A stretch of DNA of 64,000 nucleotides from Anabaena sp. UHCC 0187 (GTDB lineage: Bacteria > Cyanobacteriota > Cyanobacteriia > Cyanobacteriales > Nostocaceae). Both the position numbers and the translations under genes were made by a program. Positions 40,623 to 46,305 of this stretch are shown one piece after another (position 1 is the first letter of the stretch; each line of letters opens with the position of its first letter). The notes beneath the pieces are model-generated. The model ran no database searches. It was not told the origin of the DNA and saw nothing but the letters and a program-made list of their open reading frames with translations. The stretch covers positions 447,483-511,482 of the forward strand of contig NZ_VILB01000013.1 of assembly GCF_009712035.1 (NCBI RefSeq). The letters run 5' to 3'.

Positions 40623-41753
40623 ATGCGTCTGAGTTCCCTTGATGTGTTTCGTGGTATTACCATCGCTGCGATGATTCTGGCTAATATGGCAGGAGTTGCA
40701 GATGATGTTTATCGTTCCCTGAGTCATGCCGAATGGCACGGTTGTACACCCACTGACTTAATATTTCCCTTCTTTTTATTCATTGTTGGTGTAGCAATGA
40801 CGTTTTCTCTGTCAAAGTACACCGCAGAGAACAAACCTACCCAAGCAGTTTACTTACGCATTCTGCGCCGCACTGCGATTCTGTTTATATTGGGTTTAGT
40901 ATTAAATGGTTTTTGGAATAAAGGTGTTTGGACTTTTGATTTAAGTAGTATCCGCTTGATGGGGGTATTGCAAAGGATTGCTTTAACTTATCTGTTTGCA
41001 TCTTTAATAGTTTTAAAATTACCTCGCAAAAGTCAATGGCTAGTAGCAGGAGGATTACTAATTGCTTATTGGTTGACAATGATGTATATTCCTGTTCCTG
41101 ATTATGGTGCAGGAGTGTTAACGCGAGAAGGTAATTTTGGCGCATTTATTGATAGATTAATTATTCCCAAAGCACATCTATATAAAGGTGATGGGTTTAA
41201 TTTTATGGGAGATCCTGAAGGACTTTTTAGCACTATTCCGGCAATAGTTAGCGTTTTAGCCGGTTATTTTACTGGGGAATGGATTAAAGATAAAAAACAG
41301 GCTACTTCACAAACTAGTATGGATTTAGTATTATTTGGTTTGTGTTGTTTGGTAATTGCAATTATTTGGGATGTGGCATTTCCCATGAATAAGAAAATTT
41401 GGACGAGTTCCTATGTTTTATTTACCACTGGTTGGGCGTTAATGTTATTAGCAGCTTGTTATGAGTTGATAGAAGTAAGGGTAATAAAACGCTGGAGTAA
41501 GCCATTTGAGATAATGGGCTTAAATGCGATCGCTCTTTTTGTTGCTTCTGTATTCCTGATTAAAATCACAGCTAAAACCCAAATCGGTACAGGTGAAAGC
41601 GCTGTTAGTATCTATAATTGGATTTACCAAAATATCTTTGCATTTTGGGCAGGAAATTTCAACGGCTCATTTTTGTTTGCACTTGTTACCCTGTTATTGT
41701 GGTATGGTGTTGCTGTTTTAATGTATCAGAAACGTTGGTTTATTAAAGTGTAA
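40623..41753 (+). CDS. HGSNAT/DUF5009-like membrane acyltransferase
   Basis: A 376-residue integral membrane protein with about ten helices. The family hallmark is the N-terminal SLDVFRGITIAAMILAN (about residues 4-20), followed by WHGCTPTDLIFPFFLFIVG with the His thought to be catalytic in heparan-alpha-glucosaminide N-acetyltransferase. GVLQRIALTYL and the late FEIMGLNAIALFV are also conserved. Such bacterial proteins probably acetylate a sugar of an envelope polymer using cytosolic acetyl-CoA; the acceptor is unknown. It starts at ATG 40623, divergent from prxQ. Confidence 0.85.
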   Translation: MRLSSLDVFRGITIAAMILANMAGVADDVYRSLSHAEWHGCTPTDLIFPFFLFIVGVAMTFSLSKYTAENKPTQAVYLRILRRTAILFILGLVLNGFWNKGVWTFDLSSIRLMGVLQRIALTYLFASLIVLKLPRKSQWLVAGGLLIAYWLTMMYIPVPDYGAGVLTREGNFGAFIDRLIIPKAHLYKGDGFNFMGDPEGLFSTIPAIVSVLAGYFTGEWIKDKKQATSQTSMDLVLFGLCCLVIAIIWDVAFPMNKKIWTSSYVLFTTGWALMLLAACYELIEVRVIKRWSKPFEIMGLNAIALFVASVFLIKITAKTQIGTGESAVSIYNWIYQNIFAFWAGNFNGSFLFALVTLLLWYGVAVLMYQKRWFIKV

Positions 41754-41814: not shown

Positions 41815-43323
41815 CTACCGTTTTCGACGTTTTACACCACCAGGGCGTTTTACCCCAAATCCATACATATAAATTTCAGGCATATTAACACGCTTATCAG
41901 AACGGTTTTCGATAATTCCCAGTTGCAACAAATAGCGCATAATTTCCTCCGATTTTGAAGTGGGTGGTTGTTTTCCAACTTCTTCACTCCATGTTGTATT
42001 TTTAAGTTTATCTAGGAAAATTCCTTCTTCAACAGGAACTTTCAGACCATTCAAGCTGTTTTTCAGAGGTTCTAACCAAGGATATTCATCGACTAATTCT
42101 CCAATTCTATATTCAGAAATATCAACAAGTGCGGCTTGTAAATCAGAAGGAGTTAGTAGGGTATCTCCAGTTAAATTTTGCATATCAGATTCATCTATTC
42201 TCCGCTGCGCTGGTAATGAAAACAGCTTTAAAAATGCGCGGGGATAAATTCTTCCTCCAGAATCTTTAAGATGATTAGGAATCCAAAGATGTGTATATCC
42301 CTTTCTAGGATTGTCACCCATGAATCTACTAATTATTCTGCCGATCATAAATTCATGAGAAAGTTCGTTGGAAGTGATAATTATTCCCAAAGGTGTGTTA
42401 GTTTCTTTGAGAAAATTTGGTGATATACTACGCAAATATTCAGCCATTTCTTGACCAGAATTTGCTAATCTTTTGAAAAGTAGTTGATATAACCATGAAT
42501 CTTTCCATTCCAAATTAATTTGATAGGCTTTTAACTTAGAAGCATCAGGGAAACTTAAAAAATCTTCTCGAAAAAGATCGGTACGTAAAAAAATCTTGGG
42601 TCTAATTCTTTCCCAACGCCGCCAATTATCTAACCAAAAAGCTAAAAGTTGACGAATAGGAGCAGCTAATTGATGATATGAAGATCCTAATCTATCTAAT
42701 TCATCATAAGTAATAAATAACCATTCATCTGATTCAATTAATTTTTTATCTAACAAATCTAAAGCATAATTGATTCTTTCTATATTTTGACACACAAGAG
42801 GAAACCAAGCAGATAATAGAGGTAACTTATTGATTAATAATTCACGAGTTTCTAAAGGTATTTCATCAGACCAATCACTTTTTAATATTACTTGATCTTG
42901 GCTCAAAATTCTTCCTAACATTAAACCAATCCAAAATGCACACCAATCAATATTACTAGCATTTTGCATCTGTGCTTCTATATTCATCTGTGCAGGAAAT
43001 GTTTTTTCCTGTTGTCTAGTCCGTCCAAAAGAGGCAATCCATGTTGTTTTGTCTAAATCATCTAAAGCTCTAATTTTTAAATTTTCTACGAGTATACGTC
43101 GTCCTGAAGGAATGGCTAATAAACGAAATAATTCAGTTTTACCTGCTCCCTTTCCTCCTAATATTAAAAGTGTATCTCTTTCTAAAACTTGGCGATAGTT
43201 GGGAATAGGCAGAAAGTTTTTGAGAAAAACATCATCATTATTACTTTCGGTTTCTGCTGTTGCATTTCCTGGCGCTATATTAGACATTAATTCTAACAGT
43301 TTTTGTCTATCAAAATTACTCAT
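41815..43323 (-). CDS. P-loop ATPase (Sll1717-like), third gene of the HEPN/KGGVGR module
   Basis: A 502-residue ATPase of the type found in cyanobacterial conflict loci. Walker A is LILGGKGAGKTELFRLL (about residues 52-68) and Walker B is WLFITYDELDRLG (about 208-220). The middle has a Trp-rich segment (LLAFWLDNWRRWERIRPKIF), then LRTDLF, reminiscent of the sensor strand of STAND/AAA ATPases. The C-terminus ends in a basic winged-helix-like region (MRYLLQLGIIENR...RRKR) that may contact nucleic acid. Its ATG overlaps the stop of the preceding ATPase by 4 bp, so the three genes form a tight operon. The precise family name is from memory and should be treated as probable. Confidence 0.7.
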   Translation of the reverse strand: MSNFDRQKLLELMSNIAPGNATAETESNNDDVFLKNFLPIPNYRQVLERDTLLILGGKGAGKTELFRLLAIPSGRRILVENLKIRALDDLDKTTWIASFGRTRQQEKTFPAQMNIEAQMQNASNIDWCAFWIGLMLGRILSQDQVILKSDWSDEIPLETRELLINKLPLLSAWFPLVCQNIERINYALDLLDKKLIESDEWLFITYDELDRLGSSYHQLAAPIRQLLAFWLDNWRRWERIRPKIFLRTDLFREDFLSFPDASKLKAYQINLEWKDSWLYQLLFKRLANSGQEMAEYLRSISPNFLKETNTPLGIIITSNELSHEFMIGRIISRFMGDNPRKGYTHLWIPNHLKDSGGRIYPRAFLKLFSLPAQRRIDESDMQNLTGDTLLTPSDLQAALVDISEYRIGELVDEYPWLEPLKNSLNGLKVPVEEGIFLDKLKNTTWSEEVGKQPPTSKSEEIMRYLLQLGIIENRSDKRVNMPEIYMYGFGVKRPGGVKRRKR

Positions 43324-44738
43324 ATTATTTCCTCTTCTGTCTGGTTAAATCTTTTGTTGAATCTTATACAAAGCCTTTCAGCAATTTTTTGATAATCTTC
43401 ATTAGTCATCAAAGCTACAAGTTGTTCCAACCGATCCGATTCTTCTTGACTTTCATCACGAATAAATAAACTAATATCTCCTTGTAATTCATCTTTCAAA
43501 GGCAGTATTATAGGTGAAAAAGGTTCATTAATATCATCGGGGTTGGGTACAACTTCACCTTCATAATAGTAGTTTTCTTGAAATGCTATATATGCCTGTT
43601 CTTTAAATGCTCTTAATTCTTCATTTCTTCGTCTTTCTAAACTAGCCAGAGCCATAGCATGAACTAATACTACAGGTAGTTGTTCTCTCTCTTCTGATAA
43701 TGGTCGAGATAAACGACGAATAACATGAGTTAAACCAGCCCAACTTTGCCGAGATTGTCTACCAAATATAACTGCGGCGTGAGATAAATCAGTTAATGCT
43801 AATCCTCCAATATCATGAAATCCTGCTCTGGAATCTAAGAGAATGAAATCAAGAGGTTTAACAGCACTTTCTAGTTCTTTCAGCATTCCCTTAAAAGTTT
43901 CAGGAAGTTGATGATCTACTAAATTTTGAAAATCTAGCCTTGCTAATTTTTCTAAGTAATTAGAATCTACATTTCCCGCAGTAAATAAATGTATTTGTCC
44001 TCCTGAATTTCCGAGTAATAGTGGATTATTAATTGGTAAAATATGATCTCTTAAAGACCAATTTCTACTTTGAATTTTTTTCTCTAACAAATAATCAATA
44101 ACCCCAAAAGGCTTTGGATTATTTGGAGAAAATATTGAGGATAAGCCAGGAGCTTCTAAATCCAAATCTACTATAGCTACCCGGTGTCCATTACGAGCTA
44201 AAGTAAGTGCAGTAGCGACTAATGCTGTAGTTCTACCCACACCACCTTTAAATGAGAAAAAAGTAACAATTGCTGGTTTATGTTCCTGATAAACAAGTTG
44301 TATTTTCCAAGGAAGATTACCTGAATTCTCATTAGTCCATGTATGTTTAGCAATATGGCGCTCTAGTATATACAAACGAGGAGAGAGACCTTCATCATCC
44401 TGTTCAATAGCAATAGTATCATCATTCCATTCGGCTTCAATTCTCTGGTTTTTGATGACATCAATTAATGCTTTGTAACCATCTTTATTACCTTGTGGCA
44501 ACCAAATATCTTTACCATAGTAAGAACCAAGTTTTTGCTCTAGATATTGATCTAACTTATCTATGTCTATTTGTTCAGGTATAAAATTTGTTTTTGGTTC
44601 AAGGAAAAGCCGAATCTTACCATAAACATCACGAATGATAGTTACAGATTTCAGATTAGGTATTAAATTTAATACTAAATCTGGTTCTTTAAAGCATTCT
44701 TCTACTTTTGTAAAAGTATCACCGAAACTAATCGCCAT
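43320..44738 (-). CDS. KGGVGR-variant ParA/MinD-type ATPase
   Basis: A 472-residue protein. The first 145 or so residues form a separate domain with no recognised motif. A SIMIBI-class ATPase follows, with the deviant Walker A SFKGGVGRTTALVATAL (about residues 162-178). The usual invariant P-loop Lys is replaced by Arg (KGGVGRTT), while the signature Lys is kept. Next come VAIVDLDLEAPGLSSIF (about 187-203) and FILLDSRAGFHDIG (about 298-311, Walker B-like). This KGGVGR variant is a recognised subgroup often found in phage-defence neighbourhoods. It is the middle gene of a three-gene operon: 3 bp after the HEPN-like gene and overlapping the next gene by 4 bp. Confidence 0.8.
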   Translation of the reverse strand: MAISFGDTFTKVEECFKEPDLVLNLIPNLKSVTIIRDVYGKIRLFLEPKTNFIPEQIDIDKLDQYLEQKLGSYYGKDIWLPQGNKDGYKALIDVIKNQRIEAEWNDDTIAIEQDDEGLSPRLYILERHIAKHTWTNENSGNLPWKIQLVYQEHKPAIVTFFSFKGGVGRTTALVATALTLARNGHRVAIVDLDLEAPGLSSIFSPNNPKPFGVIDYLLEKKIQSRNWSLRDHILPINNPLLLGNSGGQIHLFTAGNVDSNYLEKLARLDFQNLVDHQLPETFKGMLKELESAVKPLDFILLDSRAGFHDIGGLALTDLSHAAVIFGRQSRQSWAGLTHVIRRLSRPLSEEREQLPVVLVHAMALASLERRRNEELRAFKEQAYIAFQENYYYEGEVVPNPDDINEPFSPIILPLKDELQGDISLFIRDESQEESDRLEQLVALMTNEDYQKIAERLCIRFNKRFNQTEEEII

Positions 44739-44741
44739 TCT

Positions 44742-45176
44742 CTAAAGTTCCTTACTACTAAGTATGCCATCTAGAATAAGTTTAGGTATAATCTCCTGAT
44801 AAATTTCTTCTGCTCGGTTAACTGCTTGCTCTGCTTGAGTTTGATTCCAAAGTCCTGATTGATCATAGCGTCTTTCTGGATGATCTTTATCTAGCACAGT
44901 TCCCGTTGTTCGAGAAGCTGGCAGTTGCATATCAAGCACTGGATACATTAAGCGTAGTCTATCCATTGCTTTACCTTGAAGTTCTGTTAAATCATGACCA
45001 TACTTTTTAACTGCTGTTTTACCTTCAGGAATATATACTTCTACTAATACTTTAAACCCACATTCAACGACATAACCCGCAAGATATACCGCATTATCCC
45101 ATCGTTGCTTATCTAACAATATTTTCGCATCATGTAAATGCCTTCCTGCTGCTTGTGGAAAAGAATCTTCTGACAA
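44742..45176 (-). CDS. HEPN-like protein, first gene of the three-gene module
   Basis: A 144-residue helical protein. HLHDAKILLDKQRWDNAVYLAGYVVECGFKVLVE is typical of the HEPN fold found next to MNT nucleotidyltransferases, and YGHDLTELQGKAMDRL follows. HEPN proteins are often RNases of toxin systems, but the R-x4-6-H catalytic motif is not evident here, so it may be an adaptor or substrate rather than a nuclease. No MNT gene is adjacent; the downstream partners are two ATPases. The start is ATG 45176. A lone HEPN with this operon layout is not one I can match to a named system. Confidence 0.7.
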   Translation of the reverse strand: MSEDSFPQAAGRHLHDAKILLDKQRWDNAVYLAGYVVECGFKVLVEVYIPEGKTAVKKYGHDLTELQGKAMDRLRLMYPVLDMQLPASRTTGTVLDKDHPERRYDQSGLWNQTQAEQAVNRAEEIYQEIIPKLILDGILSSKEL

Positions 45177-45270
45177 AATTACTCCTTAATAATTGCTTTC
45201 AAAAAAATATATGAATCCCAAATATGAGTCCGCACAGGCGGACTTTTAATCAATAAAATCAACCCATCAA

Positions 45271-46305
<1,035 letters not shown>

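What the first reader, a model, noticed from the sequence alone, without database searches (positions are those of the whole stretch)
41815..45176. Three-gene HEPN / KGGVGR-ATPase / P-loop ATPase operon: candidate undescribed conflict or defence system
Seen: three minus-strand genes packed with 3-bp and -4-bp junctions. They encode a 144-residue HEPN-like protein, a 472-residue ParA/MinD-class ATPase whose P-loop reads KGGVGRTT (Arg for the usual Lys), and a 502-residue ATPase with Walker A GGKGAGKT, Walker B ITYDELD and a basic C-terminus. Known: HEPN proteins and KGGVGR-variant ATPases both cluster in phage-defence islands. Inference: one ATPase senses or switches and the HEPN protein is effector or adaptor, yet the HEPN lacks a visible R-x4-6-H motif, which would be unusual for an RNase effector. 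I cannot match this trio to a named system.
Basis: partly seen in the sequence, partly recalled or inferred. Interest (0 to 1): 0.75.

Follow-up and report, generated by a model that had tools for sequence, protein, structure and literature searches.

The report
Catalogued HEPN–twin-ATPase phage-defence candidate operon
Three adjacent cyanobacterial genes form a mobile, widely conserved module, already catalogued as an untested phage-defence candidate, in which two ATPases probably control a small RNA-cutting (HEPN) protein.

Summary
In detail: three minus-strand genes (HEPN 44742-45176, KGGVGR ATPase 43320-44738, Sll1717-family ATPase 41815-43323) with 3-bp and -4-bp junctions. The trio is not undescribed: all three proteins hit, in order, PADLOC's candidate system PDC-M28A/B/C (48.6, 212 and 244 bits). 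I found no experimental study of it. New here: (i) the module is real: 70 of 78 loci fetched with the middle protein carry all three; the three trees agree; the ATPases are fused in 12 of those loci; flanking genes are rarely shared. (ii) It lies inside BREX-2 operons in some proteobacteria, and its neighbours elsewhere include single hits to restriction, Hma, Septu, CBASS and DISARM models. In this window it is instead a clean insertion between obgE and a DUF5009-type gene. (iii) The HEPN lacks R-x4-6-H but has the published alternative-site layout of AbiV and AF0298 (E-x3-K in helix 2, an upstream His, an invariant Arg), so an RNase effector is plausible. Best reading: abortive-type defence with an ATPase-gated HEPN RNase. 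Neither defence nor RNase activity is shown.

The parts
44742..45176 (-). Gene A: HEPN protein, 144 aa, TTG start; E38-x3-K42, H61, R103-Y104 conserved; no R-x4-6-H
   Evidence: PDC-M28A 48.6 bits; PF05168
43320..44738 (-). Gene B: KGGVGR-variant ParA/MinD-type ATPase, 472 aa, with a ~150-residue N-terminal region before the P-loop
   Evidence: NF047398, 190.5 bits, cut-off 90; PDC-M28B 212.4 bits; fold from a fused relative
41815..43323 (-). Gene C: Sll1717-family P-loop ATPase (STAND/ORC-CDC6-like, weakly supported), 502 aa, basic C-terminal tail
   Evidence: NF047389, 110.1 bits, cut-off 75; PDC-M28C 243.7 bits
41791..45182 (.). Extent of the insertion relative to the empty site of relative G014 (homology breaks at 45183 and 41790)
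45271..46299 (-). obgE (name recalled), housekeeping gene flanking the insertion; not part of the system
40623..41753 (+). DUF5009-type membrane protein gene (name recalled) flanking the other side; not part of the system
45227..45244 (-). Small GC hairpin between obgE and gene A, possibly the obgE terminator; the region's fold is not unusual (z -1.36)
   Evidence: weak

Best explanation
A self-contained, horizontally moving anti-phage (abortive-infection type) module of PADLOC candidate kind PDC-M28. Genes B and C make two ATPases that work as one unit; in many loci they are a single fused protein. C, a STAND/ORC-CDC6-like ATPase, senses an infection-specific molecule. B, a ParA/MinD-fold ATPase whose P-loop Lys is replaced by Arg throughout, acts as a nucleotide-bound dimer switch that holds or releases the small HEPN protein A. 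When triggered, A acts as an AbiV/AF0298-type alternative-site RNase and stops growth of the infected cell. Shown: co-conservation, B-C fusion, tree agreement, mobility, defence neighbourhoods in other genomes, conserved residues. Inferred: that it defends, what C senses, that B gates A, that A cuts RNA.
Against: No experiment on PDC-M28 was found. Ten genes flanking the window copy have no PADLOC hit. Ten of 36 HEPNs miss PF05168 at E<=0.01; H61 is not universal; Foldseek gave no PDB hit at E<=0.001 for A; distances between E38, H61 and R103 could not be measured. The relative closest to the PADLOC models (L060) showed B and C but no HEPN ORF, and the first protein of the Enterobacter operon has no Pfam match. 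Neighbour tallies count models, mostly one or two proteins each, and show 25 families per set; the control also has hits (PD-T4-6 kinase, PDC-S03, mad, MkoA). Tree agreement shows joint inheritance, not contact. C's own fold was not resolved.
Confidence: 0.5

Rival explanations
1. Same defence module, but the HEPN is a non-catalytic RNA- or protein-binding adaptor, and the two ATPases act directly on invading DNA (B like ParA on DNA, C through a possible C-terminal winged helix and basic tail).
For: No R-x4-6-H; B's domain matches ParA/Soj ATPases by fold; many C proteins end in a basic tail, and helix-helix-strand-strand at the end of the fused model is compatible with a winged helix (my reading); plasmid and BREX settings.
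Against: Invariant E-x3-K, R-Y and a near-invariant His argue for a retained site; no nuclease domain reported for B or C of the window or for 36 C proteins.
Confidence: 0.2
2. Toxin-antitoxin or addiction module: the HEPN is a toxin held by the ATPases, with no dedicated phage sensor, as proposed for the HEPN MAE_18760 - ParA/Soj dyad.
For: Precedent in PMC3710099 section 14 (passages); small first gene; the two decayed copies at this site lack an intact HEPN.
Against: The window HEPN hits PF05168 and lacks the R-x4-6-H that the paper gives for MAE_18760; the second ATPase C is kept in 75 of 78 loci; embedding in BREX-2 suggests more than addiction.
Confidence: 0.15
3. A housekeeping or stress-response module of cyanobacteria unrelated to defence.
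For: Here it sits between housekeeping genes with no PADLOC hit; four copies (two split, two fused) in one genome.
Against: Patchy: 23 of 60 genomes, own included and fused relatives counted, match C; empty and decayed sites; no shared neighbour family in 182 of 190 and 184 of 190 locus pairs; B and C dS against G002 below that of obgE; wide spread outside cyanobacteria.
Confidence: 0.1

Closest known systems
PADLOC candidate system PDC-M28 (PDC-M28A, B, C)
   Same: All three proteins match, in the same order; PDCs are candidates found by guilt-by-embedding, mostly unvalidated (PMC12988326, abstract and passages)
   Different: Nothing essential seen. The window copy scores well below one relative, G149/L060 (B 580, C 641 bits). 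Fused B-C forms also hit the B and C models
AbiV / AF0298 alternative-site HEPN (HEPN-T)
   Different: AbiV belongs to a two-component antiphage system (PDB title); here two ATPases are attached. The window HEPN does not itself hit Pfam AbiV
HEPN MAE_18760 - ParA/Soj dyad (Anantharaman et al. 2013, PMC3710099, passages)
   Same: HEPN gene next to a ParA-class ATPase in a conflict context
   Different: That HEPN family keeps R-x4-6-H (table passage), ours does not; no C-type ATPase is mentioned in the passages seen
NCBIfam NF047398 (KGGVGR ATPase) and NF047389 (Sll1717 family ATPase)
   Same: B and C exceed the curated cut-offs
   Different: Sequence families only; the names give no function

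Membership tests
PADLOC PDC-M28 | A, B and C homologues present | tested here: met
   48.6, 212.4 and 243.7 bits (PADLOC's own thresholds were not shown)
PADLOC PDC-M28 | Genes adjacent, same strand | tested here: met
   3-bp gap and 4-bp overlap
PADLOC PDC-M28 | Anti-phage activity | not testable with these tools
   needs a phage challenge; no study of the trio seen
NCBIfam NF047398 KGGVGR ATPase | Score above the curated cut-off | tested here: met
   190.5 vs 90 bits
NCBIfam NF047389 Sll1717 ATPase | Score above the curated cut-off | tested here: met
   110.1 vs 75 bits
Canonical HEPN RNase | R-x4-6-H motif | tested here: not met
   absent in the window protein; at the R-Y site in 1 of 36
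AbiV/AF0298 alternative-site HEPN | Arg at the motif position, no motif His, conserved His between helix 2 and the Arg-bearing helix | tested here: met
   R103 59/59, H61 54/60, H61 between helix 26-48 and helix 100-104; definition. Residue-by-residue superposition on 2hsb was not seen
AbiV/AF0298 alternative-site HEPN | E38, H61 and R103 form one pocket | not tested
Pfam HEPN_AbiV PF18728 | HMM match | tested here: not met
   no match for the window protein at E<=1; 2 of 36 relatives match at E<=0.01
MAE_18760 HEPN - ParA dyad | R-x4-6-H kept (as stated for that family) | tested here: not met
MAE_18760 HEPN - ParA dyad | HEPN of the MAE_18760 family by profile | tested here: inconclusive
   searches report PF05168 (and AbiV) only; I did not check that a MAE_18760 model is in the library
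Pfam ORC-CDC6-like PF24389 | Score above the gathering cut-off | tested here: not met
   20.7 vs 27 bits; 17 of 36 relatives match at E<=0.01

The most novel reading that the evidence does not exclude
A new mechanistic class of immunity: an obligate ATPase pair, a ParA/MinD fold with an invariant P-loop Arg plus a STAND/ORC-type sensor, that loads or releases a non-canonical (alternative-site) HEPN RNase. It would be spread over about a dozen bacterial phyla in split and fused forms and built into some BREX-2 operons as a second line of defence.
Probability: 0.35. Interest if true: 0.72.

Novelty: new member of a known kind. Interest (0 to 1): 0.48.

Why it matters
PDC-M28 is, as far as I could find, only a catalogue entry. 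The evidence here turns it into a testable system: three components that travel together, a natural B-C fusion that predicts a complex, residues to mutate in the HEPN, an invariant P-loop Arg whose role is unknown, and compact two-gene forms convenient for cloning. If it works, ParA/MinD-type ATPases join the switches used in bacterial immunity, and the alternative HEPN site gains a widespread example.

Tried and rejected
Paper library: PDC-M28 and Sll1717, 0 papers each; KGGVGR, 1 unrelated paper on lectins; wider term sets. No experimental study of this trio was seen; preprints are not held, and Payne et al. 2024 (10.1101/2024.01.29.577857) was seen only in a reference list. PMC12839542 and PMC11514479 were looked at as passages and held nothing on this trio there.

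Phage origin: no match to B in 50,697 phage records; 5 distant relatives in IMG/VR, not followed up. E. coli: the Enterobacter and Pantoea versions had no blastn match in the E. coli genomes.

Solved structures by sequence: none for C; ParA, ArsA and Fe-S carrier types for B; the profile of A gave chance-level hits and 1wol at E 0.9, and A alone gave unrelated enzymes. C's fold: the printed Foldseek and VIA rows for the fused model are ParA/MinD/NifH types covering the B part, so C and the N-terminal part of B remain structurally unclassified.

Special RNA leader before gene A: z-score -1.36, not unusual. Defence island in this window: rejected for ten flanking genes. The first co-evolution run (rho 0.75-0.91, 38 loci) paired L071 with the HEPN of its second operon; redone without L071.

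Dropped before counts: neighbours longer than 1500 aa or under 100 aa; the 'trio' neighbour set contains one fused locus, L142; the co-evolution set is the 38 (then 37) loci with three separate clean ORFs, out of 78.

Full report
Observation. The three minus-strand genes are as described: HEPN A 44742-45176 (144 aa, TTG start after AAGGAG), ATPase B 43320-44738 (472 aa) and ATPase C 41815-43323 (502 aa); A to B gap 3 bp, B-C overlap 4 bp. Pfam gives A as HEPN PF05168 (28.9 bits, cut-off 22). NCBIfam names B 'KGGVGR-motif variant AAA ATPase' NF047398 (190.5, cut-off 90) and C 'P-loop ATPase, Sll1717 family' NF047389 (110.1, cut-off 75). PADLOC-DB matches all three, in order, to one candidate system, PDC-M28A/B/C. 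The finding's 'cannot match to a named system' is therefore wrong, though PDC systems are mostly unvalidated candidates found by guilt-by-embedding (PMC12988326, abstract and passages seen).

The unit. A six-frame profile search finds A upstream in 73 of 78, C downstream or fused in 75 of 78, and both in 70 of 78; of the eight misses, L104's contig begins at B. By record titles the 78 come from Cyanobacteria, Bacillota, Myxococcota, Planctomycetota, Verrucomicrobiota, Acidobacteriota, Elusimicrobiota, Spirochaetota, Pseudomonadota, Chloroflexota and others (phylum grouping recalled). Twelve of the 70 hold a fused B-C ORF, 888-944 aa except L124 (732 aa); L071 holds a split trio and a fused operon. 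The window's own genome has a second split trio (61% identity in C) and two HEPN + fusion operons. The reverse test, 50 loci fetched by C (window and duplicates included, 1.5-kb flanks), gives B in 44; the six without are one decayed locus fetched twice (L005, L025) and four partial C matches (L010, L046, L047, L048). Tree distances correlate strongly: A-B 0.906, A-C 0.892, B-C 0.910 over 37 loci, with 0 of 999 permutations as high. This shows joint inheritance, not contact. The sampling favours trio-type B, so the frequencies are upper estimates. Against: L060, the relative scoring highest with the PADLOC B and C models, showed no HEPN ORF upstream.

Mobility. Among up to three neighbours on each side, a family is shared in 8 of 190 pairs of fused loci and 6 of 190 pairs of trio loci. 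At this site, homology to the empty site of relative G014 breaks at 45183 and 41790, so the trio is a clean insertion between obgE and a DUF5009-type gene. Of 16 genomes of the genus, the trio is at this site in 3 (G000, G002, G007), a relic in 2 (G012 lacks B and the first part of C; G004 keeps 15 residues of A), a HEPN + fusion in 1 (G015), DUF5009 without the trio in 3 (G001, G003, G014); the other 7 show neither within the 1.5-kb flank, one of them (G011) because its contig ends. dN/dS is 0.19-0.38 for the three genes and 0.07-0.08 for obgE. dS against G002 is 0.33 (A), 0.076 (B) and 0.146 (C) versus 0.405 for obgE; against G007 0.21-0.25 versus 0.467; this suggests exchange between strains. 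On plasmids, the Calothrix p2 copy has A and C by profile (L070) and the Thiodictyon, Nostoc, Enterobacter and Pantoea records show a small gene, a B relative and a large second gene or fusion in line; the first Enterobacter protein has no Pfam match and the others were not tested. No phage record matches B.

Defence setting. In Thiodictyon plasmid pTs417 the operon lies between pglX and the 'phage resistance protein'/pglZ genes of a BREX-2 operon. Homologues of those BREX genes lie on both sides in L127 (also Thiodictyon) and L133 (Malikia), with partial support in L129 and L137. Other plasmid copies lie beside hsdR, an integrase and a TIR protein, or type III res and an integrase. PADLOC scans at E<=1e-15 of neighbours gave 156 models matched for 105 proteins around 20 trio loci (one of them fused, L142), including Septu PtuA, HmaA/HmaC, CBASS cyclase and SAVED effector, DISARM DrmA/DrmD; 55 for 118 proteins around 20 fused loci (SspB/SspC, type I REase, BrxC, PD-T4-2, mad3); and 34 for 119 control proteins from 20 arbitrarily chosen cyanobacterial stretches (mostly one PD-T4-6 kinase set, PDC-S03, mad, MkoA). 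These are counts of models, most matched by one protein, and 25 per set are printed, so this is an indication, not a test. In this window ten flanking genes have no hit, so this copy is not in a defence island. One C (L136, Magnetococcales) continues into Metallophos and NACHT domains; DS-8, validated as anti-phage, joins an SMPDL3A-like phosphodiesterase to a NACHT domain (PMC13092281, passages seen; that the two phosphoesterases are alike is my inference).

Mechanism. I infer that C is the sensor, B a nucleotide-dependent dimer switch with weak or no hydrolysis because of the Arg P-loop (general knowledge of P-loops, not tested), and A the RNase effector. B-C fusion supports a B-C unit; the conserved small gene with a retained site supports A as the acting subunit. 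Probability of a defence role about 0.75; of A as an RNase effector gated by B-C about 0.45-0.5.

Verdict. Real, widespread and mobile, but already catalogued: a new member of a known, experimentally unvalidated candidate kind, with new evidence on architecture, context and the HEPN site.

Noticed in passing
L136:9996-15368: A Magnetococcales C protein (1790 aa) continues into calcineurin-like phosphoesterase and NACHT domains, reminiscent of the validated DS-8 system.
   Followed up: partly
L085:275-2663: Alicyclobacillus locus has HEPN and B but a NUDIX gene where C would be; no C found nearby.
   Followed up: partly
L127, L133 (and partly L129, L137); L147 (plasmid pTs417): Operon embedded in BREX-2 gene sets between pglX and pglY/pglZ homologues.
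   Followed up: yes
L059:9327-10638 (G012) and L209:1344-1388 (G004): Decayed copies at the obgE site: one lacks B and the start of C, the other keeps 15 residues of the HEPN.
   Followed up: partly
L061:7458-7724 and L062:9572-9814: A C-terminal piece of C alone (80-88 residues) at the same chromosomal spot in two genomes, by similar neighbours.
   Followed up: no
L086:9001-10396: In Calothrix sp. NIES-4105 gene B is split over two ORFs.
   Followed up: no
L064:7351-11537 (G015): In one relative the HEPN + fused B-C form lies next to obgE, like the split trio of the window.
   Followed up: partly
L066:6971-10209 (own genome): A divergent small gene + 925-aa fusion; the small protein has no PADLOC match.
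   Followed up: no
L060:6851-10554 (G149): B and C with very high PADLOC scores but no HEPN ORF seen; a Uma2-like gene (PDC-S17 hit) lies upstream.
   Followed up: no
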